This document shows positions 6,977 to 33,538 of a DNA stretch of 34,916 bases, in pieces (within the stretch, counting starts at the first letter, position 1; the number at the start of each line of letters is the position of its first letter). The notes under the pieces are model-generated. The model had not been told where the DNA came from, ran no database searches, and saw only the letters and a list, made by a program, of their open reading frames with translations. Source of the stretch: Coemansia sp. RSA 487 (taxonomy: Eukaryota > Kickxellomycota > Kickxellomycetes > Kickxellales > Kickxellaceae); NCBI GenBank assembly GCA_027577595.1, contig JANBRJ010000130.1, forward strand, positions 1 to 34,916, in the 5' to 3' direction. A program made the position numbers and the translations under genes.

Positions 6977-7132
6977 TCGATTACATGTGCTTCAATTAAA
7001 TGCAATAGTTTTTCCTCTTGCGTTGTCTTTCAATTGTAACATTGAGAAAAATACATATTGTGTATTATCTAAATTTTCTGAAAAGCCTGGTTTTGTTGAT
7101 AGTAAAAATATGTTTCCCATGTCCAGTTTGAG

Positions 7133-7140
7133 TATAAAAA
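7133..7140 (+). promoter_or_regulatory. TATA box of the repeat-peptide precursor
   Basis: TATAAAAA lies 104-111 bases before the ATG at 7244. A C/A-rich leader without an intervening ATG follows. The same TATA-to-ATG distance (about 90-115) recurs in front of the trypsin genes in this window. Confidence 0.6.
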
Positions 7141-7243
7141 GAGCCGCTGGGACCCGCCATATCCATTTGAACGTAAGAAAACACAACACCCTGCAACATC
7201 TAAACTGAACCCTATTCTCTACTTTAAGACTAATACTAACGAA

Positions 7244-7618
7244 ATGAAGTCCTACCTTGCTCTTGCAGCTTTGGCTGCTGTCTCTATGGCTGCTCCAGCT
7301 CCAGCTCCAGCCCCAGCTCCAATCCCCGCTCCCAACCCGCAGGTCGATAGTGTTGGCGAGTGGTATGTCAAGCGTGAGCCACAAGTCGATAGTGTTGGCG
7401 AGTGGTATGTAAAGCGCAACCCGCAGGTCGATAGTGTTGGCAAGTGGTACGTCAAGCGTGAGCCGCAAGTCGACAGCGTCGGCGAATGGTACGTCAAGCG
7501 CAACCCGCAGGTCGATAGTGTTGGCAAGTGGTACGTCAAGCGTGAGCCACAAGTTGATAGTGTTGGCGAGTGGTACGTCAAACGCGAGCCGCAAGTCGAC
7601 AGCGTCGGGAAATGGTAG
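7244..7618 (+). CDS. Secreted Kex2-type repeat peptide precursor (alpha-factor-like layout)
   Basis: The 124-residue product starts with a cleavable signal peptide (MKSYLALAALAAVSMA) and an Ala-Pro-rich stretch (about 17-30). Seven tandem 14-residue units then fill the rest. Each reads [N/E]PQVDSVG[E/K]WYV followed by Lys-Arg; the last unit stops after Trp. Lys-Arg is the classic Kex2 cleavage site, and the leading Glu-Pro or Asn-Pro could be removed by an X-Pro dipeptidyl aminopeptidase of the Ste13/DPP-IV type. That would release QVDSVGEWYV and QVDSVGKWYV. This is the architecture of fungal alpha-type mating pheromones and other kexin-processed repeat peptides. Unlike some fungal RiPP precursors, no UstY-like oxidase is seen beside it. 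Units differ at synonymous sites while the peptide is kept, arguing for a functional product. The role (mating, self-signalling or other) is inference. Confidence 0.85.
   Translation: MKSYLALAALAAVSMAAPAPAPAPAPIPAPNPQVDSVGEWYVKREPQVDSVGEWYVKRNPQVDSVGKWYVKREPQVDSVGEWYVKRNPQVDSVGKWYVKREPQVDSVGEWYVKREPQVDSVGKW
7334..7615 (+). repeat. Tandem 42-nt repeats (7 units) in the peptide precursor
   Basis: Units start at 7334, 7376, 7418, 7460, 7502, 7544 and 7586; the last is cut at 30 nt by the stop. Units 3 and 5 are identical at the nucleotide level. The order of Glu/Lys variants is E, E, K, E, K, E, K, so units 2-7 form three copies of an 84-nt E-then-K dimer. Units 4 and 7 share the synonymous block GACAGCGTCGG where the others have GATAGTGTTGG. 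Confidence 0.95.
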
Positions 7619-8231
7619 GTTTAGTTTAGCGCTGAATTCCCCCATTCTTCTATAGCTTTCATAAATCCGGATTTATTTTTTCCTCTTCTTTCTAATGGAT
7701 ATCCACAGTTAACACATCCAAAACGGGTAAAAAATGGTGGAGTAAAATACCAAGGCTTTCTGCTCCAACAAAAGAGATTTAAAAAGAAAGGGGAGAGGGG
7801 AACAGAAAGAAGCCAGAATAGTGTCAGATATAGTCTCTTTGTAAGGGACAATGGTGAAAAAAAGAACGGGACAAATAGTAAAAATAAATCCTTTTTAATA
7901 CAAAAAAGGCATTTTTATCCAAATTTCCTTTTTTATTTAGAAAAAGATGGAAAGTAAAAAGAATGAGAAAATAAAACGTACTTTCTACAATAAAATACAA
8001 GACACTAGATGCACTTTGGAAGTCCCTTACCAAAAAGCTGAATCCAGTATATCCTGTTATCCAGTGCACAGAGGTTGTGTTAGATCATTTTACATTTTAT
8101 TTTTCAATCTCCTTTTCCCTCTTCTCTTCAGTGTGTTTTTATTTCGCTCTGCATCCTTACATTATCGCATTTTCCTCTCTCTATTCTATACAACATTTTG
8201 CATTTATTTTTACATTACTTTAATATAGATT
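7619..8231. other. Intergenic, 3' region of the precursor and promoter of the arrestin-like gene
   Basis: AT-rich with A- and T-runs. No convincing reading frame; the 76-residue minus-strand frame across 7621-7851 has no family features. The T-rich 8090-8230 stretch is the likely leader of the following gene. Confidence 0.4.
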
Positions 8232-11647: not shown

Positions 11648-12646
11648 ATGGCTCCCAGGAAATTGTTGTTGCCTGATATCAGTGCCGCTGATCTCGATGG
11701 TCTTGTTATTGTTTCAGGTCCACGCAACCACTTACCTGCCACAAGCTGTTGCACGCGTCGTAAACTAGAGCCCGGCTTGACATATCGACCCATTGTGGAG
11801 GTACGTGACGGGTCCGAGCGGCTTTACAGCAAAAACAGTTTGCCATTGTTTGAGATCATAGGTGCACGAAATATAAAGAATGGCTCTGAAAGCGAGACAA
11901 CCGATGATGATAAAGGGCCAGCAGGCGCTGTTCTACGACGCCGACGAAGCGGAATAGTAAAGCGAAATGCTGCTAATGGCAAAAAGGCCGAGGAAGAGGA
12001 GGACATTAGCGATGAACATTACAGGAAACTTCATCGAAAGCCAGAGTACGTGGAGAAACGGATACGTAATAGGGAAATTGAGCTGTATCAGTACTCACGG
12101 TGGCAAGAGAGCCAGCACAAGTCGGCTGTAGCAGCGGCAGTGGAGGAGGCAGCGACTGAATCCGGTAGCGATGCTCTGCCTCCCGTTGACATAATCAGCG
12201 AAGCGTTACGCAAGCTTGATTCCACAGACGATACGGATAGTAATAGTAGTGGTCATCGGCGGCAGCGTCGGAGGAAGGAGCTTTTGGCGCTGGTGGACTC
12301 GAATGGATACCAGAAAGCACAGCAGCAAATCCATGACCACGAGCAGCAATTGTTGCTTCAGCAGCAAAAGCAGCAGCAGAGGGAAAAGCAGAAACTGCTG
12401 CGCCAAACATCGGAGCACGACAGGAAAATGTCGCGCTTGGGCGGTGTCATCCTTGAGCAGCTGCTTGTACAGGCATCGCATTTCCCGCCAAAGCCACCCG
12501 CCAGCCTTTCTAGCGATCTCGACAATGAAAATACCGAGGATGAAGCCCAGCAAAAAAAGTACCCTTGCTGCCCACGCGAGTTTTCAATTCCTCCACGCCT
12601 GTACAGCCAAGTGATCAAGCACCGCAATATCAACGCCACCGATTAA
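11648..12646 (+). CDS. SAS4-like (PEHE-related) chromatin scaffold protein, tentative
   Basis: The 332-residue acidic/basic, mostly disordered protein contains YRKLHRKPEYVEKRIRNRE (about 125-143). This resembles the HRxPExxEKRxRNxE core of the SAS4 / MSL1-type domain, which tethers MYST histone acetyltransferases in yeast SAS and animal MSL/NSL complexes. Other visible parts are a basic run RRRRSGIVKR near 97-106, a Gln-rich coil near 225-250 and a C-terminal FSIPPRLYSQVIKHR segment. The rest has no named motif. It lies close behind the oxidase gene and just ahead of PDK1 on the same strand. A nuclear role in histone acetylation is inference from one short motif. Confidence 0.5.
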   Translation: MAPRKLLLPDISAADLDGLVIVSGPRNHLPATSCCTRRKLEPGLTYRPIVEVRDGSERLYSKNSLPLFEIIGARNIKNGSESETTDDDKGPAGAVLRRRRSGIVKRNAANGKKAEEEEDISDEHYRKLHRKPEYVEKRIRNREIELYQYSRWQESQHKSAVAAAVEEAATESGSDALPPVDIISEALRKLDSTDDTDSNSSGHRRQRRRKELLALVDSNGYQKAQQQIHDHEQQLLLQQQKQQQREKQKLLRQTSEHDRKMSRLGGVILEQLLVQASHFPPKPPASLSSDLDNENTEDEAQQKKYPCCPREFSIPPRLYSQVIKHRNINATD

Positions 12647-14570: not shown

Positions 14571-15767
14571 TTAATTCTGGGAATCAGATGTTGTTGACAT
14601 GAACGTGGATATGCTTGCAGCAAAATCAGCAGCACTGTACAGTTCAAGAGGAGTGGGATTGATACCAACAAGAGAAGTGTCGATGGTGGGCGGTACAAGT
14701 GGTGCAAGCATGGGCGTCATATCCTCAAAGGAAAATGGTCCGTAGTAGGACGACATATCAAGCGACTTTGTAGCCAGCTGTTTGCGCATATCCTCAGTGA
14801 CACATCTCCGACGCTTAGCGGCAGGCGGCTTGGAAAGCATCATAGGCGATGCTGAAGCAGCCCGTGTGCAAGCAGTGGTATCTGAAGCCGGCAATGTCAA
14901 ACTACGGCGGCGGGCGGATCCGTCAAACCCAGCAGGCGGTAAGGACTCGGTGTCTGACGAACCGCTGCTGCTATCGTCGCGGGACCGCTTGGTACCCATC
15001 GTTGCCTTCTTCATGTCGTAGATTTTCTTTTCTTCCAAGTACTGGATGCGGAACTGGTTCTTGACATCCTCGCTCTCGGTTTTCCAGCACTCGCCAGCCA
15101 ACCGCGAGATCTCTGTTTGGCTTGCTTCTGGATGCAACCGCTTGAGCTCGGCTATCTTGTAGCTGCGGTACTTGATAAAGGCGTTAATAGGTTTGTTCGA
15201 CTTTTCCTTGGGTTTCTTGGCCGCAACAGATGGCAGTGCCGACGCTATGGCAGAAGCATTGGCTGCTGCCGATTGCTGCCTAGAGTGAACAGACCTTGGC
15301 TTTGACGTTTGCTTGGCCGAGTGCGAACGTCCCTTGGGTCGGGATGCAGCCGCAGCATTGGCGGCTTCCACCAGAGGAAGCGGAGGCAGCACTGGAGGAG
15401 CAGGCGGCGGAGCCATCGTTGCGTTCTGCTGGAACTTGTCCAGCGTCTGCGCAAGGCTGTAGCCGAGCGGAACATAGACGACGCAGTGATTGGGCACATG
15501 CTCAATAAACATGCGTCCGTCGGGAAGACATATCTGCTGGCACATCTGGTCCGCAAGCCCGCCTGCTTCGTCCTGGCGGTAAATGTAGCAGGGAGCCGGG
15601 GTGTCGGCGCCAATAACAGAAGTGCATGGCAGCACGGCAGGTGATGGAATGTAGGATTGCGAGGCATAAGGGGGAGTAAGGTACTGAGTTGGAGGCGTGG
15701 ACATGAAGGCGGGAGGTGGTGGTGGTGGCGGTGCCATGTATGCAAACTGGCTTTGGTACTGGTCCAT
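14571..15767 (-). CDS. HMG-box transcription factor of the MATA/Ste11 type
   Basis: The 398-residue protein has a single HMG box at about 191-254: NKPINAFIKYR, then HPEASQTEISRLAGECW, then KNQFRIQYLEEKK. The NAFIxYR start and the EISRxxGExW core are characteristic of the MATA_HMG / Ste11 / sexM-sexP class of sequence-specific factors, not the abundant non-specific HMGB class. The N-terminal 140 residues are Pro-rich with a poly-Pro run (13-19). A Cys-containing conserved-looking segment spans about 60-112. The C-terminal part is Ser-rich with a KRRRC basic patch. Fungal relatives control mating type or sexual development, others control morphogenesis. The gene converges on PDK1 and lies 7 kb from the repeat-peptide precursor. 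Identity as a mating-type gene is not shown. Confidence 0.85.
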   Translation of the reverse strand: MDQYQSQFAYMAPPPPPPPAFMSTPPTQYLTPPYASQSYIPSPAVLPCTSVIGADTPAPCYIYRQDEAGGLADQMCQQICLPDGRMFIEHVPNHCVVYVPLGYSLAQTLDKFQQNATMAPPPAPPVLPPLPLVEAANAAAASRPKGRSHSAKQTSKPRSVHSRQQSAAANASAIASALPSVAAKKPKEKSNKPINAFIKYRSYKIAELKRLHPEASQTEISRLAGECWKTESEDVKNQFRIQYLEEKKIYDMKKATMGTKRSRDDSSSGSSDTESLPPAGFDGSARRRSLTLPASDTTACTRAASASPMMLSKPPAAKRRRCVTEDMRKQLATKSLDMSSYYGPFSFEDMTPMLAPLVPPTIDTSLVGINPTPLELYSAADFAASISTFMSTTSDSQN

Positions 15768-18785: not shown

Positions 18786-19783
18786 TTAAAGTAGACATTT
18801 CGAGTAGATAAACATTTGGTGTTCATTGTTAAAAAAAAAGTAATTAGAAGTAGATGCCGAAAAGCAGCACTGTGACGACATGGGCTGTGGTGCTGGCAGC
18901 TGTGTGGTTGGAACTGGCTTAAGCGCACTGGACACTGGGCCAGTTGCAATGCTTTGCCCAGTGATGGACTCAATCCATGGGACAAAGTGGCTGATGCGCA
19001 TGTAAATTCCAAAACTGTTGAGTTGGCCGCAGGTCACATTGTATTCCTTGTTGCGACCATAGCTGGTAAGGCCGGCAATGTGCGACTTTCCACCAGTAGT
19101 AACAATTGTGCCAGTGCCTGAATCGCTCTGGCACACATCGACGCCAGCATTGTAGTTGTTATCGACGCAAATGAGCGATTCTTCAGTGTTGTCGTATATT
19201 GGATCAATGACTTGGCAGTCCTGTGGCTCGCCAACGTACACTTTTTGCGTCAACAGCATAATGGACAAGTTGGAACCAGTTCCTCCAGCGACTGTCAAGC
19301 CCCACCCGAGTATGTCCATCTTCTGATGCGGCTGAATATCGCTGTTATAAACAGGAAGGGCCTCAGTGTACCCCTGCTTTAGCAGAATTGCTGGCATCTG
19401 GATTATAAGAATATCGTTGTGGAAGTTTCCCGTCTCATTGAGCTGTGGGTTCATAGTCACTTTGTTTGCAACTACTCTAAAGCCAGTCCCTGGCGCAACA
19501 TTGCCATATATAACGGTTATGCTTGCTGTAAGATAAACAGTGTCGTTATCAGCATCATACACGCAGTGGGCAGCGCTAACAACTGTGGTCGCGCCAAGGA
19601 TAGTTGCACCACGGTGGACTAACGTGTCTGCGCCCCTTTGGCGATGACCAATTAGACAAAGTACGGCGCCTGACCTTGTGGTGAGGCCGTATCATTCGTG
19701 AAACGCATGTCTGGGAGCACAACCGAAAGCCCAGTGCTGACAAACGCTACAGCAGCGGTAAGTATATATTTAGCGAATGCCAT
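18786..19783 (-). pseudogene. Decayed trypsin-like (S1) protease, first of the tandem array
   Basis: The ATG at 19783 begins a signal peptide and propeptide like those of the three downstream paralogues (ending LPDMR then FTNDT). The frame then meets TAA where the relatives have Gln, about 45 residues in. A nearby length change shifts frame before the AAHC segment. From there to 18786 the protein is recognisable: AAHC with the catalytic His, HNDILIIQ with Asp, and QSDSGTGT with Ser but with the usual Gly before Asp changed to Ser. The Cys that pairs with the AAHC Cys is also lost (HRGATI for RCGGTI). At the 3' end a further shift hides a tail that still reads FGIYF-stop in the next frame. At least three disabling changes in 250 codons point to a pseudogene. 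A TATATA at about 19895-19900 survives. Confidence 0.8.
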
Positions 19784-20482
19784 AACGATAACGAGATGAG
19801 TGTTTGAGGATAAAGGTAGTTATTACATTGATACTGGAACATTCTTGCTTGAGAGGGAAATATGTTGCAAGGGGAGAAATCAATGGGTACTACGTATATA
19901 ATGGCACGATTTTATGCGTAAACAATTACTCAGTCGCCGGTAGTTAATGGCTTCACTTGCTACAGCAAGGCGGCTACACTAATGCGAGATTATATTTACA
20001 ATGCGTTTAATGTAATTTTCCCTTTGCCATGCTCTTTACATCGATTTCTTTCATATCAGCAATGACGCAAGTGGTGAACAATGTTTAATGACATTTTCAT
20101 TGGCGCTCATTTGTGTGTCTAGTGTCAATATATTCCTCTTTCGCATTTGCTAGGTATAAGCACATATCGAGCGCGATACTTATGTTTAGCTTTATAACTA
20201 ACCAATCTTTCAGAATTAAAATGATGGTGCTTTAATCCATATGAATGAAACTATTCCAAAACAATGTTGTCTCCTTCCCGGTGGACAAGCAAGTTAGTCA
20301 ATAGTATGCTGTTAATTTTCCATAAAATGTGAAGCAACTGGGATAAGTAAAGAATATGTTTACATTCGTGGGCAATGTAATTTAGAAAGGATATTTTTCC
20401 AATGAATAAACATGGACGCGGGAGCAAGAGTGGTGAAGGCAAGAATTAAGTGTTTATTGGAACAGATGGTTAAATTTGATGA
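19784..20482. other. Spacer between protease copies 1 and 2
   Basis: AT-rich, no gene seen. It holds the TATA element of the decayed copy and a stretch near 19946-19985 (ATGGCTTCACTTGCTACA) resembling the sequence 5' of copy 2 near 21651-21676. This suggests the flanks were duplicated with the genes. Confidence 0.4.
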
Positions 20483-21436
20483 CTAGAGACATATATTGAA
20501 GAGACAGAACCATGATGACGACGACGATGTAGGTTGTGGTGCTGGTGTCTGTGTTGGAGTTGCCACAGGTGCAGGTGTGCTAACTAGCTGTGGGCCAGCG
20601 CTAACACCATGTTTAATGACGGATTCGATCCACGGAATATAGTAGTAGGGGCGTGTGTAAAAACCAAAACTGCCAGCTTGCCCGCAAGTCCGGTTACCTT
20701 TTGCGTCAGTTCCATAACTGACAAAGCCAGCATAGTAATCATGTCCGCCCACAGTTATAATTGTTCCAGTACCTGAATCACCTTGGCATGCGTCAACTCC
20801 AGTGTGGTAGTCATTATTGGCACATATTTGCCACCCATTAGCGTCCTCGTATGATGGATCAATAGTCTGGCAGTCCTGTGCTTCTCCAACGTACACTTTC
20901 TGCGTTAACAGCGCAGTGGACAAGTTGGCACCAGTTCCTCCTGTGACTGTCAAGCCCCACCCAAATATTTTCATTTGGTCAAGTGGCTCGATATCACCGT
21001 TATACACGGTAATAGCTTCAGCCTTTCCTGGTTGAAGATCCATTGGCGGCACCTGGATAATGGCAATATCGTTGTGGAGATGGCCATTATTGTTGAAATT
21101 TGGGTGCACAGTTAAACTGGTTGCATTTACACGCGTACCCTCAAGTTGTACAACACTGCCATAGATAACGGTAAGTGCACTTGCATCATATGCGACCTTG
21201 GTCTGCATATTGGTTACACAGTGTGCGGCAGTAATGACTGTGGTTGCATCAAGAATGGTTCCACCGCAGCGGCCGTAAGTGTCATTACCTTCGTATGTGA
21301 GTAATTGAATAAAGTACGGTGACCGGCCCTGTGGAGAGAGAGTACCGTTCGTAATGCGCATGTCCGGGAGTACAGAAGAAAGCACTGTTCCGGCAAGCCC
21401 GGTAGCAGTGGTTAGTAAAAGCGAAGCGATTCTCAT
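20483..21436 (-). CDS. Secreted trypsin-like serine protease (S1), copy 2
   Basis: The 317-residue zymogen has a signal peptide (about 1-20), a 7-residue propeptide SVLPDMR and a mature start ITNGT. The catalytic triad is His72 (TAAHC), Asp123 (HNDIAIIQ) and Ser221 (QGDSGTGT). Asp215, six residues before the Ser, corresponds to trypsin Asp189, so cleavage after Arg/Lys is expected and autoactivation at Arg27 is plausible. The Ser motif ends in Thr-Gly-Thr in place of the canonical Gly-Gly-Pro. After the catalytic domain comes a Pro/Thr/Ser linker (about 285-310), then WFCLFNICL. Several NxS/T sites suggest glycosylation. A TATATATAAA (21522-21531) lies about 90 bases upstream. It is one of a tandem set on the same strand, each with its own promoter. 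Confidence 0.92.
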   Translation of the reverse strand: MRIASLLLTTATGLAGTVLSSVLPDMRITNGTLSPQGRSPYFIQLLTYEGNDTYGRCGGTILDATTVITAAHCVTNMQTKVAYDASALTVIYGSVVQLEGTRVNATSLTVHPNFNNNGHLHNDIAIIQVPPMDLQPGKAEAITVYNGDIEPLDQMKIFGWGLTVTGGTGANLSTALLTQKVYVGEAQDCQTIDPSYEDANGWQICANNDYHTGVDACQGDSGTGTIITVGGHDYYAGFVSYGTDAKGNRTCGQAGSFGFYTRPYYYIPWIESVIKHGVSAGPQLVSTPAPVATPTQTPAPQPTSSSSSWFCLFNICL

Positions 21437-22184
21437 AATGGCAATGGATTAGATGCTGAAAAGACAAAAACAACCTTGTGGATGTGGAAATGTTAATTGC
21501 TTGAGAAAAAACATGCCTTAGTTTATATATAAGCATTGTATTTTTTGTGTAAAAGCAATATCAACAATTGAAGTGGTAAACTTTGTTTCATATAATGTAA
21601 CATTCTGCGTTACATTTATCTGTAGAGTGTATTTCAACCGGCAAATATTAAATGGCACACTTGCTACAATGATGCGAATACATTGATGCAAGGTGGAGCA
21701 CACACTGTGGTGAGTGGAATATTAACAAATGAGTTTGACTGATTATACTCTATGTAATTTATTCATTGTCAAATCCCTGTGACTAAAGTTGTATGGCTGT
21801 TATACTACCATTGAAGCAAATCTAAATAGCATGAAAGGACACCGCTTTAAATGTCAAGGATCATAGCTGTACGTTTGAAGGAAGAAAATATATTTTCACT
21901 AATTCATGCCACCTATACACATACATCTATTTGTAGCGGGATATAATTGGTTTTGTAATATATTGCCTCATTTGTCGTAGCCAGTATCAAATTGATATTA
22001 GTAGCTGGATATCTAAAACCAGATATTTAGAGAATGAAGGAAAGAAAAATAGCTAGCAATTATAATTATATGTATACGATCATTGATGATACAGTTTGGC
22101 AATTATATTTTTCCAGCAACTAAACTATCATACATGTAGTAGAAAAAGTATAGAGTTTATTGGATAAAGTAGTCAATTTCATCT
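21437..22184. other. Spacer between protease copies 2 and 3
   Basis: AT-rich, no gene seen. It holds the copy 2 promoter (TATA at 21522-21531) and ATGGCACACTTGCTACAATGATGCG-like sequence near 21651-21676 shared in part with the other spacers. Confidence 0.4.
21522..21531 (-). promoter_or_regulatory. TATA box of protease copy 2
   Basis: Reads TATATATAAA on the minus strand, about 90 bases before the ATG at 21436. Confidence 0.5.
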
Positions 22185-23126
22185 TTAGAGACAGTAACCG
22201 AAAATGCAGAACATTGATGAAGTCGGAGTTGGAGTAGGAGTTGAAGTTTGAGTAGTCGCAGCCGTAGGTGCACTGGTCACTGGGCCAGAGACAACATTAT
22301 GCCCGATAATCGACTCGATCCACGGAATAAAATAGTTTGTGCGCGTGTAAATCCCAAAGCTTCCGGCCTGTCCGCAAGTCGGATGATGTTGTGCATCAGT
22401 TCCGTAACTGACAAGGCCGGCAATGTATGGTTTTCCGCCTGAATTTATAATTGTTCCGGTGCCTGAATCGCCCTGGCACACATCTACGCCCACATTGTAG
22501 TTATTGTCAACACATATAAACGATCCATCTGCATTCATGTATGTAGGATCAATGACTTGACAGTTCTGTGGCTCTGAAATGTACACCTCTTGTGTCAAAA
22601 GAGAAGTTGACAAGTTGTTACTCGTTCCTCCTGGCAATGTCACACCCCATCCGAATATCTGCATCTGCTCTTGTGGCTCAATATCACCATTAAAAATCGG
22701 AATGGTCTCGACGTAATCTGGCTGAAGTGGGATTTTTGGGATTTGGATAACTGCAATATCATTGTGGAGGTTGACACTCGGGGTGAACAGTGGATGCACG
22801 TTGACTGAGGTTGCACCTACCCTTTTTCCTGCCAATGCCTGGACGTTGCCATAGATAATAGTTATGCCTTTTGCTGAATATGTTGCTTCATTATCAAAGT
22901 CGTACACGCAGTGTGCAGCAGTGATAACTGTGGTCTGGTCAATCAGGGTTCCACCGCAGTGCTCAATGATCCCCCCGCCATCATCAATAAGCACCTGGAC
23001 AAAATACGGTGCCTGGCCCTGTGGCGAGAACGTGCCATTAGTAACGCGCACATCCTGGATCACGGCGGAAAGCACGGTGCCAGTAAGTCCTATCGCCGCT
23101 GTAAGTAAATGTCTAGCAAACTTCAT
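22185..23126 (-). CDS. Secreted trypsin-like serine protease (S1), copy 3
   Basis: I start at 23126 because it aligns with the paralogues' signal peptide; the ATG six codons upstream only adds MLFTGI. The 313-residue product has the same plan as copy 2 with catalytic residues at identical positions: His72, Asp123, specificity Asp215, Ser221. The propeptide ends QDVR and the mature form begins VTNGT. GVDVCQGDSGTGT surrounds the nucleophile. The tail is a Thr/Pro linker then SSMFCIFGYCL. It probably acts outside the cell on proteins with Arg/Lys, for nutrition or host/insect substrates; that is family inference. It shares an extended promoter box with copy 4. Confidence 0.92.
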   Translation of the reverse strand: MKFARHLLTAAIGLTGTVLSAVIQDVRVTNGTFSPQGQAPYFVQVLIDDGGGIIEHCGGTLIDQTTVITAAHCVYDFDNEATYSAKGITIIYGNVQALAGKRVGATSVNVHPLFTPSVNLHNDIAVIQIPKIPLQPDYVETIPIFNGDIEPQEQMQIFGWGVTLPGGTSNNLSTSLLTQEVYISEPQNCQVIDPTYMNADGSFICVDNNYNVGVDVCQGDSGTGTIINSGGKPYIAGLVSYGTDAQHHPTCGQAGSFGIYTRTNYFIPWIESIIGHNVVSGPVTSAPTAATTQTSTPTPTPTSSMFCIFGYCL

Positions 23127-23625
23127 AATTCCAGTAAAAAGCAAAAAGTAAAAAAATTTGAATGTGGAGATGATTCCGATGGTACAAGAAGTATTTTATT
23201 TATTTATTTTTGTTTAAGCGAATACGTCTCTTCTTTTTATACATATGTAGTCCCTTGCATAAAGGCAGTGTAAAATAGCGAAAACATCAAATAGTGCTAC
23301 GTATAACATTGCTTTCTGTGCCACGCTTATGTATTAGCTATTACTCAATCATCAAAGACAAGTAGATCACTCACTTATTATAGCGATACGGCTACATTTG
23401 TGTTAAATGGCACACATAAATCATTATATTCTTTTAATAATATCAATGTTGCAAAAATGTGAGTGCAGTTGTTTAAAGAAGTAGTCTTAATGTCCAAAGC
23501 CCTATCTTGTATTTTTGATTACTCTCGTCTACGTATCCAATGTCAAGGCATTGCTCTGACACGTCCATTATTATTGTGACAACAAAATGATTGTGCGAAT
23601 TCGAACCTGTTATTAAATTAGATCT
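23127..23625. other. Spacer between protease copies 3 and 4
   Basis: AT-rich, no gene seen. It contains the copy 3 promoter box at 23227-23241 and TTAAATGGCACAC near 23403-23415, shared with the spacer 5' of copy 2. Confidence 0.4.
23227..23241 (-). promoter_or_regulatory. Shared TATA-containing promoter box, protease copy 3
   Basis: On the minus strand TATAAAAAGAAGAGA, about 101-115 bases before the ATG at 23126. The same 15 bases occur in front of copy 4. Confidence 0.6.
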
Positions 23626-24558
23626 CTAGAAACAAATAAAGAAGAGACAGTATGAAGAGGATGTGGGTTTTGGCTCTGGCGTCTCTGTTGGTGTTGTCAG
23701 CGGGCTTGTCAATGGCCCAGTGGAAACGCCATGTCCAATGACAGATTCAATCCACTTTGCAAAATAGCCAACACGTGTATACATGCCAAAGCTACCAGCT
23801 TCGCCACAAGTCGGATTGTAGTGCTTGTCGCGACCATAGCTTACAAGGCCAGCAAAGTACTGTTTTCCACCGGAAAATACAGTTGTTCCTGTACCCGAAT
23901 CGCCCTGGCACACATCGACACCCACATTATAGTTGTTGTCTACGCAGATAAGCGAGCCATCGGCATTTTCATATGACGGATCAATGTCCTTGCAGTTCTT
24001 TGGCTCGCCAACATATACCTTCTGCGTCATCAGTGCTGTGGGATTGTCGTCATTCGATCCCCCTGTGCGTGTCTTGCCCCAGCCGTATATTTGCATCTCC
24101 CGGTGCGTTTCTATATCGCCGTTATACATGGCAATTGACTCGGCGTACCCCGGTTTTAGTGTCATTTTCGGCACCTGGATTATGGCGATATCATTGTGGA
24201 ACTCGCCGCCAGTATTGTACTGCGGATGAACTGTTACTTTGGTCGCACGCGCATATGTTCCGTCAAATGTCTGTACGCTGCCGTAGATAACAAGTATACT
24301 GTTCGGCGGATAGGTTGTGCCGTACCTTGCATTGTACACACAGTGGCCGGCAGTAATAACCGTGGTCTCATCAATAATGGTCCCACCACAGCGGCCATAC
24401 CGGTCTCCGCCCTCATTAATGAGGAGCTGAGTGAAGAATGGTGCTTGTCCTTGTAGCGAAAGTGTGCCATTTGTAACACGTATATCCTGGATCACAGCAG
24501 AATGTGCGATGCCAACAAGCCCGACAATAGCAGCAAACAAAGATGTAGTGACTCTCAT
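23626..24558 (-). CDS. Secreted trypsin-like serine protease (S1), copy 4
   Basis: The 310-residue protein has a signal peptide (1-20), propeptide AVIQDIR and mature start VTNGT. His72 (TAGHC), Asp123 (HNDIAIIQ), specificity Asp215 and Ser221 (QGDSGTGT) are all present. TAGHC for TAAHC is a mild change. The catalytic domain is followed by a Thr/Pro/Ser linker and the tail SSSYCLFFICF. The gene starts the array and is divergent from the inactive GPI-anchored relative at 25201, so the two may share control sequences in the 640-bp spacer. Confidence 0.92.
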   Translation of the reverse strand: MRVTTSLFAAIVGLVGIAHSAVIQDIRVTNGTLSLQGQAPFFTQLLINEGGDRYGRCGGTIIDETTVITAGHCVYNARYGTTYPPNSILVIYGSVQTFDGTYARATKVTVHPQYNTGGEFHNDIAIIQVPKMTLKPGYAESIAMYNGDIETHREMQIYGWGKTRTGGSNDDNPTALMTQKVYVGEPKNCKDIDPSYENADGSLICVDNNYNVGVDVCQGDSGTGTTVFSGGKQYFAGLVSYGRDKHYNPTCGEAGSFGMYTRVGYFAKWIESVIGHGVSTGPLTSPLTTPTETPEPKPTSSSYCLFFICF

Positions 24559-25200
24559 TATTAGAAATAACTAAGTGTAGAGGGAAGATAAAAGATAATC
24601 TCAAGTGGCGCCCAAATTTCTCCTTTAGTCTCTTGCTGAAAAAGAACGTGTCTCTTCTTTTTATATACACCTTGGCGGGGCTCTCCCTTGCATATTGGCA
24701 ACGTATGTTGTATAAAAAAATTAAAGGGATTTTTGTGTATAAATGCATTTTATACTACATTTACCAACATAGTTTTGCTTTTTTTTCAATCGCCAGTGGT
24801 CAATGGTGGTTCTCTTCCATTTATTTGCCACCAATTTTCTAAATATGCAATATCATGGAAATTTAATTTGTATGATCAGACCAATGTTTGCATTTCATTC
24901 GTGTGCTTTTTTTCTTTGATAAAGAGCCTCTGATTGGTTGTGCTGGAATAACAAACTGCCTTAAAACCTGTTTCTTTTTTAAATAATACGGGCGTCGGCA
25001 TTGGTGGGAGAGAGACGAGAGAGATCCGAACAACAGGCTCAAAACGGTCTTGCTCTTTCAGAAATTTTCTGCTTCTTTCTTTCTTTCCTTCCTTCCTTCC
25101 TTCCTTTCTTGTTAGACTTTGATACATCCCATCACATCACTTTTATACCGGCATTTTCCTTTTATACTTTTTTATTGTTACGAAAAACTCCTTTACGAAG
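24559..25200. promoter_or_regulatory. Divergent promoter region, protease copy 4 and protease homologue
   Basis: No gene seen. Copy 4's promoter box is at 24651-24665. On the other side, a pyrimidine tract with TTCC repeats (about 25078-25109) lies in the leader of the 25201 gene. Confidence 0.4.
24651..24665 (-). promoter_or_regulatory. Shared TATA-containing promoter box, protease copy 4
   Basis: On the minus strand TATAAAAAGAAGAGA, identical to the box of copy 3, about 93-107 bases before the ATG at 24558. Confidence 0.6.
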
Positions 25201-26319
25201 ATGGTCTCCTTTGTTACACTTTCCATTGCTTTTATCGCATCCGCTGCCACTGGTGGAATCAGCGGCGTTTACGGTTCAGCTGATATGCTCGAGAGACGCA
25301 TTGTAGGCGGCGGCGCATTGGATGCTAGCCATGACTACTCGTTTCTCACCAACATCCTGGCCACAGTTGACGGCAAAGCCGCATATGCGTGCACTGGTGC
25401 ACTGGTTGCGCCAAATGTCGTTATTGCGCCAGCATCGTGCGTGGCAAACTCTGTAAGCAGCAAGGCGCTGCAGCCCAACCAGGTGGTAGTCGGGCAAGGA
25501 AACCCATCGACGATGCTTGCGCTAGTATCCAAGGGCTCGTCAGTTGATTTAAGCAAAGCAGTGTCTGGCGGTGGGTACGCGTATCCCACTTCGGTTACGT
25601 CGCACCCAGGCTATGACTCCATTGCATTCACCGACAACATTGCGGCACTGGTGCTGTCGCAGCCGCTTGCGTCAAAGGCAACGAGTGCCAAGCTGATCAT
25701 CAAACCGTCTACTGATTCAGGCGCTTCCTACACTGCGGTCGGATGGGGCATTGCGTCGGCCACCAATGCCACAGACTACTCGCAGGCGCCGCTCCAACTG
25801 CCGCTGACGGTTGCTAGCAATGATACCTGCACGGAGATTTGGGCACCCTACAAAAGCCTGACGAATTCGCTGTGCCTTGAGCCATTGGACAGCACCAAGG
25901 CCAATGTGTGCACAGGCGACGGGCTTCTTATCAAGACCAACGGCCAAACTGCTGCCATCGCTGGGCTTCTGAATATTGTGGCAGCAGAGGGCGAGGTCCC
26001 GGCGTATCAGTGCGCGGGGTCTTCGGGAACTGTGGACTTTTTCACGACGTTTGCCAACTACGTCAGCTGGTTGACACAAGTGACGCCATTGGAATCGTCT
26101 GCCTTTGTGTCAACCGATTCCTTTGACTACCAGAACGCTGCTGGCGCCGCCCAATCCAGCAACGATGATTCCGAGTCGGACAGCTCTAATGCGGAGAGCA
26201 ACACTTCGGAAGAAAGCGAACTGACCAATGTCGAGTCGTCCGAGTCCGGTGCAGCTGGCGGCTTGTTTGCACCAACCCTGGCCGCTTCTGTTGCTGTAAG
26301 TGTTTTGCTACTTTTCTAG
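25201..26319 (+). CDS. GPI-anchored, catalytically dead trypsin-like protease homologue
   Basis: A signal peptide is followed by MLERR then IVGGG, a classic zymogen junction with a dibasic site. The S1 fold is visible through HPGYDS, FTDNIAALVL (Asp145 at the catalytic Asp position), VGWGIAS and NYVSWL. The catalytic His is replaced by Ser79 (APASC for AAHC) and the nucleophile by Gly241 (CTGDGLL for CQGDSGG); Asp189 is Asn235. The protein should therefore not cleave peptides. After the domain (about 34-293) comes an Asp/Glu/Ser/Asn-rich stalk (about 315-350), then ESGAAGG and a hydrophobic tail ending SVAVSVLLLF. This is a typical GPI signal with a likely omega site at Ser/Gly/Ala near 347-350. 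It would sit on the plasma membrane or wall, perhaps as a binding protein, decoy or adhesin. The function is inference. Confidence 0.85.
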   Translation: MVSFVTLSIAFIASAATGGISGVYGSADMLERRIVGGGALDASHDYSFLTNILATVDGKAAYACTGALVAPNVVIAPASCVANSVSSKALQPNQVVVGQGNPSTMLALVSKGSSVDLSKAVSGGGYAYPTSVTSHPGYDSIAFTDNIAALVLSQPLASKATSAKLIIKPSTDSGASYTAVGWGIASATNATDYSQAPLQLPLTVASNDTCTEIWAPYKSLTNSLCLEPLDSTKANVCTGDGLLIKTNGQTAAIAGLLNIVAAEGEVPAYQCAGSSGTVDFFTTFANYVSWLTQVTPLESSAFVSTDSFDYQNAAGAAQSSNDDSESDSSNAESNTSEESELTNVESSESGAAGGLFAPTLAASVAVSVLLLF

Positions 26320-26652: not shown

Positions 26653-28482
26653 ATGTTTCGTCGTTATGCCAGTGTTGCGTGGAAGTACAAGAAGACCACG
26701 CTCTTCGCCGTGGGTGCCACTTTCGCAGGGTACCGCTTGACAAAAATGCGACTGGCAAAAACTGCCAGCCTGACGATCCATCCGCAAACAGTTCTTACGT
26801 GGCGTATCACCGATGGATTGATAGTCGAGTCGCCAACACAGGTTGATATGGGAGACTCGGGGTTGTTAAGCAAGATACTGAACAATGCCCTTCGCGACCC
26901 TGACGAAATAACCGTGCTTGAAGCGTTGCTTTCCCTAGAGCTGGCCGCCAAGGATCCACGTATCGAGGCGATAGCTATTGATTTGACCACAAGCTCCAAA
27001 AACGGTCGCGGCAACGCAGGGTCAGCTGGTATCTCGATGGCTCAAGCCCAGGAACTGCGCGCTGCGCTATTGAACTTTAGGGAGCTCAAGAAACAGCAGC
27101 ATGGAGCTGATAGTGGACGGGTCTACTTTTACGTTGACTCATTTGACGACCAAGCTACGTACTACTTGGCATCAGCGTGTAGTGACATTATTGTCCAGCC
27201 CAGCGGAACCCTGCCTCTGACTGGAGTGTTTGCAACGCAATTCTTTGTCCGCCGTCTTGCAGACAAGCTTGGCATAAAGCCGGTTGCCGAGAGCCGCAAA
27301 GACTACAAGAGCGTCATGTCAATGCTCACAGAGACAAAGATGCCTGCAAAGCAGCGCGAAAACATGGCCAGTATGCTCGAGTCCTTGAACGATATGCTTG
27401 TTTCTGATATCGTCGGTTTCAATCCAGAGGGCGCAACAGAGCCGTTGACTACAGAGGCTGTGCGCAAAGCAATGGCTGAGGGTCCGCTCTCTGCACCTGA
27501 AGCCGTCGACAGGCATCTGATATCGCGCTGCGGTTACGCACTCGATGTGAAATCGATCATTGGGCCACGCAAGTCGTTTGGTATCTCCGCATACAGAGTT
27601 GTACGTCAAAAGGAGTTGAGTCGGCTAAATGCAGAAGCGACAGACACCGTTGGTGTTGTTTACCTTCTTGGCGCTATCCAACGCAATGGAATGCATAGCG
27701 CCAGATCTATTGCCAACACCTTGTTAACCACAGCTGAAGACTCATCGGTCTCGGCCATTGTCCTTCGCATCGACTCTGGTGGCGGTGATGTCGTTGCCAG
27801 CGAAACCATTGCCTGTGCAGTTGAACACATCCAGAACACAGTTGGAAAGCCTGTCATTGCTAGCTACGGAAGCACTTCTGCGTCAGGCGCTGTCTTTGCC
27901 TCAGCCATGTGCCGCAAAATCTTTGCTGACCCAGCAACTGTCACTGGCAGCATCGGTGTTGCTTCGGTGCGGCCAGTATTTACAGACAAGCTGCTCGATT
28001 ATGCGGGTCTCAATATCGAGGAGCTGCGCACCGTCGACAACCGCACTTTCTCGCTGATTGAAGAGTCTTCTGGCGCCGAGCTGCAGCGCTTCAAGAAGAG
28101 AATTGATCAGACCTACGACGATTTTGTCGGTCGTGTTGCCAAGGGCCGCAACTTTACATCCGAACAAGCAGAAGCTGTTGCCCAAGGCCAAGTGTTTACA
28201 GGCGCACAAGCCAAGGCAAACGGGCTTGTGGATGAGCTTGGCGGCTTAACGCGCGCTATAGAGGCGGCTGCGCAGCTCGGACACAAGACAGATGACAAGT
28301 ACGAGGCTGATATTACGGAGAATGTAAGCGTCAAGGTCTCTGTGCCGAAAACAATGGTTGGTCTAAGGCATTTGACCAAACCACTTGTGTCGCAGATGCT
28401 GCGTGCGGAAGCTGAACGCCTACTGCTCCAAGAAACTTCACAAAACGTGGATGCAAAGCTAGATGACATTTACTTTAAGTAG
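26653..28482 (+). CDS. SppA-type signal peptide peptidase (peptidase family S49), probably mitochondrial
   Basis: The 609-residue protein has the two-domain layout of the long (67K, E. coli-type) SppA. The catalytic Lys is Lys219 in SRKDYKSVM and the Ser is Ser411 in GSTSASGAVF, matching the E. coli Lys209/Ser409 pair in context and spacing. LRIDSGGGDVVASE and ADPATVTGSIGVASVRPVF are further S49 hallmarks. Bacterial SppA digests leftover signal peptides in the membrane, and plant forms sit on thylakoids. The N-terminus (MFRRYASVAWKYKKTTLFAV) is basic and amphipathic then hydrophobic, consistent with a mitochondrial presequence and a membrane anchor. Yeast has no S49 enzyme, so its presence in a fungus is notable. 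Origin (organelle-derived or transfer) is not decidable here. Single exon, intact. Confidence 0.9.
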   Translation: MFRRYASVAWKYKKTTLFAVGATFAGYRLTKMRLAKTASLTIHPQTVLTWRITDGLIVESPTQVDMGDSGLLSKILNNALRDPDEITVLEALLSLELAAKDPRIEAIAIDLTTSSKNGRGNAGSAGISMAQAQELRAALLNFRELKKQQHGADSGRVYFYVDSFDDQATYYLASACSDIIVQPSGTLPLTGVFATQFFVRRLADKLGIKPVAESRKDYKSVMSMLTETKMPAKQRENMASMLESLNDMLVSDIVGFNPEGATEPLTTEAVRKAMAEGPLSAPEAVDRHLISRCGYALDVKSIIGPRKSFGISAYRVVRQKELSRLNAEATDTVGVVYLLGAIQRNGMHSARSIANTLLTTAEDSSVSAIVLRIDSGGGDVVASETIACAVEHIQNTVGKPVIASYGSTSASGAVFASAMCRKIFADPATVTGSIGVASVRPVFTDKLLDYAGLNIEELRTVDNRTFSLIEESSGAELQRFKKRIDQTYDDFVGRVAKGRNFTSEQAEAVAQGQVFTGAQAKANGLVDELGGLTRAIEAAAQLGHKTDDKYEADITENVSVKVSVPKTMVGLRHLTKPLVSQMLRAEAERLLLQETSQNVDAKLDDIYFK

Positions 28483-30572: not shown

Positions 30573-32101
30573 TCACCCGCTGCCTTGGATGGTAAATTTG
30601 AAAAGGTAGCTTATTCTAAAACAAATGACGATGCCGATGCCAAGCAAAAAATCTACCGACTTTTTATGTAGGCGCTCTATTGTCTCCCTGTATTTGTCAT
30701 ACAATCCGCTGGCAATAGCCTTCTTTGGTTCCCATTGGTATTTTCCTCTTTGGTCGTATGGTACTTCTGTAAATATAAAGTTGGCGCACAGAATTGCGAA
30801 TACTATTGACGCCAGCGCTATGGGCTCTTCAGATCCATCACCATCAAATTTGGTTATCCAGTGTTTGAAACGATAGCTCAGCGGATAATACTTGATATAA
30901 ATATCATCCACAAAGTTTCTGTTTTGTCCAACCTCATCCCCCAGTCCAAGGCCATCCTCTTTGAAGTAGCATAAAAGTCTTGTCAAATTTGGTAATTGTC
31001 TGATAAGGTTAATCATATCCAGCAAATTAAGCTCGGCATATTCCAAGCGCAAAACCTGGATATTTTCCGAGCAAGAGCGTATACGAGTGGATTCACCGAT
31101 ATCTTCATAAGTACAGGATTCTGACAATGAAATGAGCTTTGTCGATGGTGAGATAAGCCCGACAGCAGATTTGAGAAATAAAGTGTTTTCAGAATTATGG
31201 TAGGCAGAACCGTACTCTGCACGGTTTGATGAAACAAAGTCGTGAATAGCTACCACTGGCAAACGCTTTGTACTTTTGCCAAATATCAAGCAAATCGGTG
31301 TCAAATTTTATATAGAGGTATTCTAAAGTATCATCGTTTCCTCTAAATACTATACCATCGTCGAATACATACTTTGACGCCCATGTAAAGCAACACAGGG
31401 CTGGGAATAGTTTAACAGATTTGTCGATTTTAATTTTTTTCTCAAGCCATCCGCCAGAAGAGATGTCAAGCTCTAGCTTCTTCATTCGGGGATATACGAT
31501 TGGCTGGTCCATGTCATCAACAACAAGAGACTTCACCGCATGTAAATAATAGTGCGAAACTCTCAGTGACTACAATGTTTGTGCTGATTCATTGGCAATG
31601 TGGTGGAGAAGGTCAACGTTGAACATGCGGTTAATTTCCAGCTGGGTAAGTTTCGAGCAATTTGGCATGAACGAATATTCACTTGCTGGGCGAATCGGTT
31701 TTGCACTGAAATCCAGACTAGTCGCCTTTTGAGGATAACCAACAAAAGCTCGTCTATGTTCCATTTTGTCCTGTCGAATATAAATTGTAGCAAATAATCC
31801 CTGAATCCAAAGTCACGGATATCAACCTTTTGAAGCTTTGGCATTGCCATTCTTATGCTTTTGCAAACCACGCATACTCTTCAGCTCTTGGAGTTTTGTT
31901 TATCGCTTCGTGCTGTTCGTCTGAACCGGTGGTATCGATGCTCATGAAACGTGCCGACGGAAACACCAGGCTTTCAGGCCAAGTAGACGAATAGTCATTA
32001 CGTTTCTCCACGCTTGGAAGTCCACATTCATCTTTGAAAATAACCTCGACCTCCCTGACACAGATGAATAGCGCGGTCTTTGCCTTAATTATGCCTGGCA
32101 A
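30573..32101 (-). pseudogene. Broken member of a large F-box/LRR-like family
   Basis: Four overlapping or adjacent minus-strand frames (32101-31853, 31871-31563, 31536-31195, 31304-30573) read in order as one protein interrupted by frame changes near 31860, 31740 and 31240 and a TAG near 31572. Segments such as MPKLQKVDIRDFG, KLTQLEINRMFN, YPRMKKLELDI, DDTLEYLYIKFDTDLL and LRQLPNLTRLLCYF-like stretches have leucine-rich spacing. The C-terminal part (YIKYYPLSYRFKHW, IVFAILCANFIFTEV) resembles a multicopy family of uncharacterised F-box/LRR-like proteins that I associate with Kickxellales genomes; that match is from memory. The gene is clearly non-functional as read. A multi-intron gene is less likely because good GT-AG pairs are not seen at the breaks. 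Confidence 0.5.
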
Positions 32102-32479
32102 AATCTATCAAGATATTTTTGGTGCATAGGTTGTGCATCGAAAGTTGCAAACAGTGGCGATCAGCAGCAGATAATGCTTGCATGCAGACGCGGGTAAGCA
32201 CGCGACCCTTGATGCTGTATTTCGGTGCACAGGCAAGACAAACAAGCCTCGCGCAACAGAGGGATCCAAAGCTGCGTTTATTTTTACAAAAGGCCAACGG
32301 AAAGGAAAGTCGGAAGCGCCAACGAGGACCATTCCTGTGATACTGTGTTGTCTTTCAAAGCCCGTTTGCATGGCACAGCATGTTTGAACGACGCAGTGCA
32401 TGCGCATCGTGCAAAACTGGCGCACTTTCAAGAGACAAAGCACGAGTCTGCCTTGTTTTTGTGGTGCAAAGCGCAGGCG

Positions 32480-33280
32480 CTATCGGCAGTCTGCGCCAAG
32501 CTCGGTCTCGAGTGCATTGTCTACATGGGTTGCGAGGACATGCGCCGCCAGTCGCTCAATGTCCTCCGTATCCGCGGGCTTGGCGGCAAAGTCATCCCCG
32601 TAACAAAGGGATCGTGCGCTCTTAAGGACACCATCAACGAGGCCATGCGCGACTTGGTTTCAAACCTCGATACCACATACCATCTTGTCAGCTCGGCAAT
32701 CGGCTGCCATCTATTCCCAACAACGGCACGCGACTTTCGGCGTGTCATTGGAAATGAGACCAAAGAGCAGCTGAAGGCGCTGGCTGGCCGTCTACCCGAC
32801 ACACTGGTGGCATGCGTTGGCGGCGGCAGCAACGCGATTGGCATATTCCATCCATTTAGCATGAACAAGAGCGTCCGTCTTGTCGGGGCAGAGGCTGCAG
32901 GCAATGGCGTCGATACTTCTAGGCATTCGGCAACGATGTCTGCCGGGGCCCCGGGTGTGTTCCACGGCGCCAAGACGTATCTTCTACAAGACAAAAAGGG
33001 CCAGGTCATGGAGACACACTCCATCGCAGCTGGGCTTAACTATCCTGGTGTTGGACCTGAGCATTCGTGGCTCAAGTCGACTGGCCGTGCTGAGTACCAT
33101 GCTGTCACCGATGCCCAGGCGCTTGAGGGCTTCCGCAGCCTTGCTGAGCTGGAGAGCATCGTTCCGTCACTCGAAGAATCGCACGCTGTCTACCAAGCAA
33201 TGTAAGTTGCCTCAACTATGACCAGCAATGAGCTACTTGTCATTTGCATCAGTGACAATAGCGACAAAGGCTTGAGCTGA
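32480..33280 (+). pseudogene. Truncated tryptophan synthase beta-chain relic (TRP5 C-terminal half)
   Basis: From about 32489 the frame matches the C-terminal two-thirds of tryptophan synthase beta: VCAKLGLECIVYMG, KVIPVTKGSCALKDTINEAM, VACVGGGSNAIGIFHPF (the PLP phosphate loop), METHSIAAGLNYPGVGPEHS and EESHAVYQAM. A TAA at 33203-33205 interrupts it, but the same frame continues VASTMTSNELLVICIS to a TGA at 33278-33280, matching the normal C-terminal continuation. The N-terminal part with the catalytic PLP-lysine (HTGSHKIN in relatives) and the fused alpha domain of fungal TRP5 are absent. The 32225-32480 stretch shows no clear family match. It is a recent-looking gene fragment, presumably copied from a functional TRP5 elsewhere. 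Confidence 0.85.
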
Positions 33281-33538
33281 TCTTGCAAACACACTTCTAG
33301 CTTCTAGCTTTGATGAGAGATATGGCTCTGCGACTTCCATAAATCAAGCCCTTTCGTCAATACACCACACGACTAAAACGAAAACAAAAGCCACTTGCAT
33401 AAATTGCGCAGTATCAGAAAAGGGTTATTTTTTTGTAAGAAAATGGATTTCTTGCTCTTTTCCCTTTGCTCGCTTTATGTAAATGTGCAAATCTGCATTC
33501 TCAACAGTTTAGCAAACTTCTTTTTTTTTCATACGCCA
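33281..33538. other. Spacer and leader before the AAA-ATPase-like gene
   Basis: No gene. The T-run at about 33520-33529 lies directly before the chosen start at 33539. The frame is open upstream to an ATG at 33395, but the extra residues are Phe/Leu-rich leader-like sequence. Confidence 0.4.

What the first reader, a model, noticed from the sequence alone, without database searches (positions are those of the whole stretch)
7244..7618. Alpha-factor-like repeat precursor: a candidate unknown secreted signalling peptide
Seen: signal peptide, Ala-Pro spacer, seven near-identical units [N/E]PQVDSVG[E/K]WYV separated by Lys-Arg. Known: Kex2 cuts after Lys-Arg, and Ste13/DPP-IV-type enzymes remove X-Pro or X-Ala pairs; yeast alpha-factor precursors share this plan. 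Inferred: the mature forms are QVDSVGEWYV and QVDSVGKWYV. I know of no described peptide with this core. If the fungus is an early-diverging lineage, a peptide pheromone of this class would be notable.
Basis: partly seen in the sequence, partly recalled or inferred. Interest (0 to 1): 0.88.

Follow-up and report, generated by a model that had tools for sequence, protein, structure and literature searches.

The report
Fungal repeat precursor of secreted peptide
This fungal gene seems to make a small secreted protein that is cut into seven near-identical peptides, on the same plan as the yeast alpha mating factor; this peptide was not found in the papers searched, but precursors of this kind are already known from many fungi.

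Summary
Frame 7244-7618 (+) encodes 124 residues: a signal peptide, X-Pro dipeptides, then seven units, six ending in Lys-Arg. Corrections: no Lys-Arg precedes unit 1, and unit 7 stops after Trp. Among the six full units 14 of 42 DNA columns vary, 12 at third codon positions; only 2 of 14 residues change, and 0 of 5000 neutral simulations had so few. The peptide is therefore under selection. If the signal peptide is cut after Ala16, exactly eight X-Pro dipeptides lead to core 1, so Kex2, Kex1 and a Ste13-type enzyme could release QVDSVG[E/K]WYV. The gene fits the published Kex2-processed repeat proteins (KEPs) with a STE13 signature; it does not match the alpha-factor Pfam families. No relative was found in a prokaryotic and a viral collection, and the core is in 0 papers of the library searched. 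No genome is held, so receptor, orthologues, expression and lineage remain open. New member of a known kind; function inferred.

The parts
7133..7138 (+). TATAAA, candidate TATA box 111 bp upstream of the ATG
   Evidence: motif position; function not tested
7244..7618 (+). whole precursor gene, 124 aa plus stop, no intron needed
   Evidence: selection on units
7244..7291 (+). signal peptide MKSYLALAALAAVSMA, predicted cut after Ala16 (Ser at -3, Ala at -1)
   Evidence: hydropathy maximum 2.38 over 10 residues; 13 of 164 ATG frames of 40 aa or more in the window reach it, itself included; cut site by the -3,-1 rule (recalled); SignalP not available
7292..7339 (+). 16 residues = eight X-Pro dipeptides in register (AP x5, IP, AP, NP), the last shared with unit 1; no Lys-Arg before unit 1
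   Evidence: spacer split into dipeptides; Lys-Arg positions
7334..7375 (+). unit 1 NPQVDSVGEWYVKR
7376..7417 (+). unit 2 EPQVDSVGEWYVKR
7418..7459 (+). unit 3 NPQVDSVGKWYVKR
7460..7501 (+). unit 4 EPQVDSVGEWYVKR
7502..7543 (+). unit 5 NPQVDSVGKWYVKR
7544..7585 (+). unit 6 EPQVDSVGEWYVKR
7586..7618 (+). unit 7 EPQVDSVGKW and stop; lacks Tyr-Val-Lys-Arg

Best explanation
This is the precursor of a short linear secreted peptide, made by a fungus as a cell-to-cell signal. The chain enters the endoplasmic reticulum and the signal peptide is removed after Ala16. Kex2 cuts after each of the six Lys-Arg pairs, a Kex1-type carboxypeptidase trims Lys-Arg, and a Ste13/DPP-IV-type dipeptidyl aminopeptidase removes Asn-Pro or Glu-Pro from each unit, plus the seven X-Pro pairs in front of unit 1. 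This yields about six QVDSVG[E/K]WYV and one QVDSVGKW per chain; the N-terminal Gln probably closes to pyroglutamate. The most likely role is self-signalling between hyphae (a peptide hormone or chemoattractant, perhaps sexual) through a receptor not seen here. Shown: the anatomy and selection on the peptide. Inferred: cleavages, pyroglutamate, role, receptor.
For: Anatomy. Selection: 2 of 14 residues variable, 0 of 5000 simulations as low; pN/pS 0.09 over the six full units and 0.11 over ten codons of all seven. Between the predicted signal-peptidase cut and core 1, 8 of 8 dipeptides are X-Pro; 7 of 7 units begin with X-Pro. No DUF3328/UstYa match in the 36 stop-to-stop frames of 130 aa or more (E up to 0.01), so no sign of cyclisation in the window. 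Published: KEPs with a STE13 signature are called good candidates for peptide hormones, and the signature is reported absent from Rep1, cyclic-tetrapeptide and epichloecyclin precursors (PMC6339444, passages). KEP peptides with N-terminal Gln were detected as pyroglutamate forms, and peptides of STE13-type basidiomycete KEPs were detected (PMC9769878, passages, Discussion).
Against: No transcript, peptide, orthologue or receptor was seen. Knockouts of six KEP genes in Coprinopsis cinerea had no apparent phenotype, and those authors favour roles towards the biotic environment. A STE13-type plan does not exclude cyclisation: of 76 KEPs homologous to the putative Basidiomycota pheromones of the 2019 survey, 17 had a DUF3328 gene nearby (PMC7329392, passage). 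Unit 7 departs from the C-terminus of the others. SignalP could not be run, and the register of the spacer depends on the predicted cut after Ala16.
Confidence: 0.57

Rival explanations
1. The same precursor and processing, but the linear peptide acts outwards, on other microbes, animals or the hyphal surface, and is not a signal between cells of the fungus.
For: Authors of the Coprinopsis cinerea knockouts favour roles towards the biotic environment (PMC9769878 Discussion); Rep1 of Ustilago maydis is a KEP whose peptides attach to hyphae and form amyloid-like fibrils (passages).
Against: The cores carry side-chain charges of -2, 0 and 0, unlike the cationic peptides usual among membrane-active antimicrobials (recalled); Rep1 is reported to lack the STE13 signature that all seven units have here.
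Confidence: 0.25
2. A true alpha-type mating pheromone homologous to ascomycete alpha-factor.
For: Same order of parts: signal peptide, dibasic sites, X-Pro pairs, near-identical short repeats.
Against: No MF_alpha or MF_alpha_N match at E 0.01 (no positive control run). No Lys-Arg-ended pro-region. The core has no Cys and lacks the PYGXPXG motif of the subgroups named, and lacks a PGQP-like motif (recalled).
Confidence: 0.07
3. A dikaritin-type cyclic RiPP precursor (ustiloxin, phomopsin, epichloecyclin plan).
For: Signal peptide and Kex2-separated repeats with a Tyr in 6 of 7 units; 17 of 76 KEPs homologous to STE13-type basidiomycete ones do have a DUF3328 gene nearby.
Against: No UstYa-like match in 36 of 36 long frames; 8 HxxHC motifs in six frames, none in a fitting gene (the one in a long frame lies upstream of the kinase's likely ATG at 12927). 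DUF3328 proteins were detected in no named phylum outside Ascomycota and Basidiomycota (PMC7329392). The STE13 signature is reported absent from cyclic-tetrapeptide and epichloecyclin precursors.
Confidence: 0.06
4. Not a working gene: a repeat with a chance open frame, or a decayed precursor.
For: An overlapping 217-aa antisense frame and a 122-codon Met-less antisense frame are open too; unit 7 is cut short.
Against: Third-position bias and constant peptide; TATA-like box and single-exon frame with a signal-peptide-like start.
Confidence: 0.05

Closest known systems
Kex2-processed repeat proteins (KEPs) with STE13 signature, Basidiomycota and Rhizophagus irregularis (PMC6339444; PMC9769878)
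   Same: Signal peptide, three or more near-identical short repeats between dibasic sites, XA or XP after the Kex2 cut; function unknown
   Different: Core QVDSVG[E/K]WYV found in 0 papers; run of eight X-Pro pairs directly after the signal peptide with no dibasic site before unit 1 (how common this is was not checked; supplements could not be read)
Ascomycete alpha-factor precursors
   Same: Processing plan by Kex2, Kex1, Ste13
   Different: No Pfam alpha-factor match, no Lys-Arg-ended pro-region, no visible likeness of the core (by eye)
Dikaritin RiPP precursors (ustiloxin and kin)
   Same: Signal peptide and Kex2 repeats, Tyr in most units
   Different: No UstYa-type gene seen in the window; STE13 signature present here
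Prepromelittin of honeybee (recalled)
   Same: Run of X-Pro/X-Ala pairs removed stepwise by a dipeptidyl peptidase
   Different: Single peptide, animal venom gland, no Kex2 repeats; analogy of processing only

Membership tests
KEP (PMC6339444 and PMC7329392 criteria) | ER signal peptide | tested here: inconclusive
   hydrophobic stretch and fitting cut site; SignalP not available
KEP (PMC6339444 and PMC7329392 criteria) | at least three tandem repeats of 8 aa or more between dibasic sites (criteria read) | tested here: met
   six full units ending in KR plus one terminal unit; the only one of 164 ATG frames of 40 aa or more that passes my repeat screen
KEP (PMC6339444 and PMC7329392 criteria) | repeats fill at least 15% of the protein (PMC6339444) | tested here: met
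   units span residues 31-124 of 124
KEP with STE13 signature | XA or XP dipeptide after each Kex2 cut | tested here: met
   6 of 6 units that follow a Lys-Arg begin with Asn-Pro or Glu-Pro, and unit 1 too
Ascomycete alpha-factor | MF_alpha / MF_alpha_N Pfam match | tested here: not met
   no such family at E up to 0.01; no positive control run
Ascomycete alpha-factor | recognised by a Ste2-type receptor in mating | not testable with these tools
   no genome held
Dikaritin RiPP | UstYa (DUF3328) gene close by | tested here: not met
   36 of 36 stop-to-stop frames of 130 aa or more scanned with Pfam, none; shorter exons and genes beyond the window not seen
Mucoromycota-type sex locus (TPT, HMG, RNA helicase; recalled) | HMG gene flanked by TPT and helicase genes | tested here: not met
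   HMG-box gene at 14574-15767; no TPT or helicase match in the 36 frames

The most novel reading that the evidence does not exclude
In an early-diverging (zoopagomycete, perhaps Kickxellales) fungus this gene encodes a peptide mating pheromone of alpha-factor plan, acting through a G-protein-coupled receptor and linked to the HMG-box regulator 7 kb away. Peptide sex signals would then not be confined to Dikarya.
Probability: 0.1. Interest if true: 0.85.

Novelty: new member of a known kind. Interest (0 to 1): 0.45.

Why it matters
Outside Mucoromycotina and Blastocladiomycota the pheromones of early-diverging fungi are called largely unknown (PMC6339444 section 18), and mating genetics in Zoopagomycota 'still not well understood' (PMC10386755, passage). 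The 2019 survey named Rhizophagus irregularis the unique early-diverging fungus with STE13 signatures, though it held few such species. If this window is zoopagomycete, it is a further case. The peptide is short, its masses can be predicted, and it could be synthesised and tested directly.

Tried and rejected
Own-genome search for relatives of the precursor: error, no genome held; for that reason no search for a receptor, Kex2 or Ste13 was made. Relatives in GTDB contigs and IMG/VR: 57 and 7 pattern matches, none confirmed by tblastn; both collections are prokaryotic or viral, so this says little about fungi. Neighbours CSC1 and arrestin in IMG/VR, hoping for stray fungal contigs: 13 and 8 pattern matches, none confirmed. 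PDB by sequence: the 6 best of 10 matches (E 0.011-0.26) are myosin light chains over query residues 12-36, that is the end of the signal peptide and the Ala-Pro spacer with the first residues of unit 1; the other 4 are weak (E 0.61-1.1); none taken as a relative. Pfam DUF2944 (E 0.00018) and RHH_ERCC6L2 (E 0.0013) lie below their curated cut-offs, with no single stretch passing, and were rejected as chance on repeats. NCBIfam: no match for the precursor. Rfam and tRNA scans: nothing. Bacterial promoter scan of the flanks: 1 site, 2.9 expected, not applicable to a fungus. Codon-usage score: does not separate sense from antisense in the repeats. Placing the lineage: NDUFS4 scores highest against two fungal complex I chains (153 and 119 bits) and about 97 against mammalian ones (organisms recalled), which says fungus but not which. 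The Kickxellomycotina phylogenomics paper is not held. A splice reading upstream (GTAAGA 7173, TACTAAC 7234) was considered by eye; it would remove the start codon, and the single-exon reading was kept.

Full report
What is there. Frame 7244-7618 (+) encodes 124 residues: MKSYLALAALAAVSMA, then AP AP AP AP AP IP AP, then seven units. Units 1-6 are [N/E]PQVDSVG[E/K]WYVKR; unit 7 is EPQVDSVGKW and stop. The stop is followed by a Val codon and a second in-frame stop (bases), so the array edge lies where a full WYV end would fall. Whether the shorter end matters is unknown.

More than chance. The array has the two highest repeat scores of 10 rows in the window. In the six full units 14 columns vary: 12 third, 2 first, 0 second codon positions. 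Only 2 of 14 residues change: Asn/Glu in the removable dipeptide and Glu/Lys at core position 7. In 5000 neutral simulations the mean number of variable residues was 8.47 and the minimum 4. Sense pN is 0.051 and pS 0.552. In the frame of the 217-aa antisense ORF pN (0.150) and pS (0.154) are about equal, and I take it as a shadow. A second antisense frame (7255-7620) also changes little, 3 of 14 residues, pN 0.048 and pS 0.417, but holds no Met; the substitution test alone does not exclude it. Codon usage was not informative. The simulation treats columns as independent and ignores gene conversion between units, which could exaggerate sharing; it does not explain the third-position bias.

How it probably works. 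If signal peptidase cuts after Ala16, the 16 residues up to core 1 are eight X-Pro dipeptides with none left over, and each later unit starts with one. Signal peptidase, Kex2, Kex1 and a Ste13-type enzyme would then use up the whole precursor, with no pro-region left and no Kex2 site needed before unit 1. This is inference from register. The motif recognised by STE13 is reported to be often a repetition of XA or XP dipeptides (PMC6339444, passage), and peptides of STE13-type KEPs were detected in mushrooms (PMC9769878, passages and Discussion). N-terminal Gln was found as pyroglutamate in Coprinopsis cinerea KEP peptides. Role: the 2019 authors regard STE13-signature KEPs as good hormone candidates. 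Against this, six Coprinopsis cinerea KEP knockouts had no apparent phenotype and their authors favour roles in biotic interaction; and 17 of 76 KEPs homologous to the putative Basidiomycota pheromones have a DUF3328 gene nearby (PMC7329392), so the plan alone does not exclude cyclisation.

Surroundings. Pfam was run on 36 of 36 stop-to-stop frames of 130 aa or more (frames). Found above curated cut-offs: Pre-PUA/PUA protein (MCT-1-like, recalled), NDUS4, RSN1/PHM7 channel (CSC1, recalled), Arrestin_N protein (starts 614 bp after the precursor's last base), multicopper oxidase, protein kinase (PDK1-like, recalled), HMG box, UFD1-like protein, five trypsin-family frames, peptidase S49, a PALP frame that is a tryptophan-synthase-beta fragment, and AAA-ATPase_like. 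Two further frames (11648-12643, 30576-31307) matched nothing. The 16 frames gave one sub-threshold match (DUF7542) and nothing else; 15 of them overlap a frame scanned before. No UstYa, TPT or helicase match was seen. The HMG protein matches HMG_box (43.0 bits) and only sub-threshold MATalpha_HMGbox (27.5 against 28.1); its best PDB match of 7 is mitochondrial Abf2. A link to mating is therefore speculative.

Lineage. No genome is held and no tree was built. Mostly single-frame genes with trypsins and AAA-ATPase_like suggest Kickxellales to me; this is recall, not a test. At least one likely intron exists (34208-34320). NDUFS4 is most like fungal chains (organisms recalled).

What is known. 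The 2020 survey counts 7878 KEPs in 1345 of 1461 strains; Zoopagomycota have the highest density, 185 KEPs in 16 strains, none accompanied by DUF3328 genes (PMC7329392 section 5). The 2019 survey calls Rhizophagus irregularis the unique early-diverging fungus with STE13 signatures (PMC6339444 section 18), on few such species (section 6). The core or its pieces occur in 0 papers of the library; supplementary tables were not readable, so the precursor may already be listed. What I saw of each paper: PMC6339444 abstract, passages and sections 6, 9, 18, 24; PMC7329392 abstract, passages and sections 5, 13; PMC9769878 abstract, passages and Discussion; PMC10386755, PMC8778642, PMC5567314, PMC10478498, PMC7466969 and PMC10406608 passages only, besides listings.

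Verdict. A KEP with a STE13 signature whose peptide is under selection: a new member of a known kind. It works like an alpha-factor precursor, but membership in that family is not met by Pfam. Pheromone function is open.

Noticed in passing
14574-15767 -: HMG-box protein with a sub-threshold MATalpha_HMGbox match, 7 kb from the precursor; possible but unproven mating link.
   Followed up: partly
18786-26319: Five trypsin-family frames, four on the minus strand and one on plus. The frame at 18789-19691 matches the profile only from position 28 on, so its start is missing or in another exon; the plus-strand one ends in a Ser-rich tail and a hydrophobic stretch.
   Followed up: partly
32213-33205 +: Tryptophan synthase beta fragment matching TIGR00263 only from position 113 on and below its curated cut-off (328.8 against 392.45 bits); of 43 PDB hits one is a fused alpha-beta entry, near the end of the list; looks like a truncated copy.
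   Followed up: partly
33392-34761 +: AAA-ATPase_like gene in two frames (the second below cut-off) separated by a likely intron (GTAAGC ... TTTAG, 34208-34320).
   Followed up: partly
7173 and 7234: GTAAGA and TACTAAC just upstream of the precursor's ATG; could be splice signals, but using them would remove the start codon.
   Followed up: partly
6992-7645 -: 217-aa antisense frame across the array; unconstrained between units, no Pfam match, taken as a shadow.
   Followed up: yes
26653-28479 +: Peptidase S49 (SppA-like) gene, a family whose function is listed as unknown in fungi.
   Followed up: no
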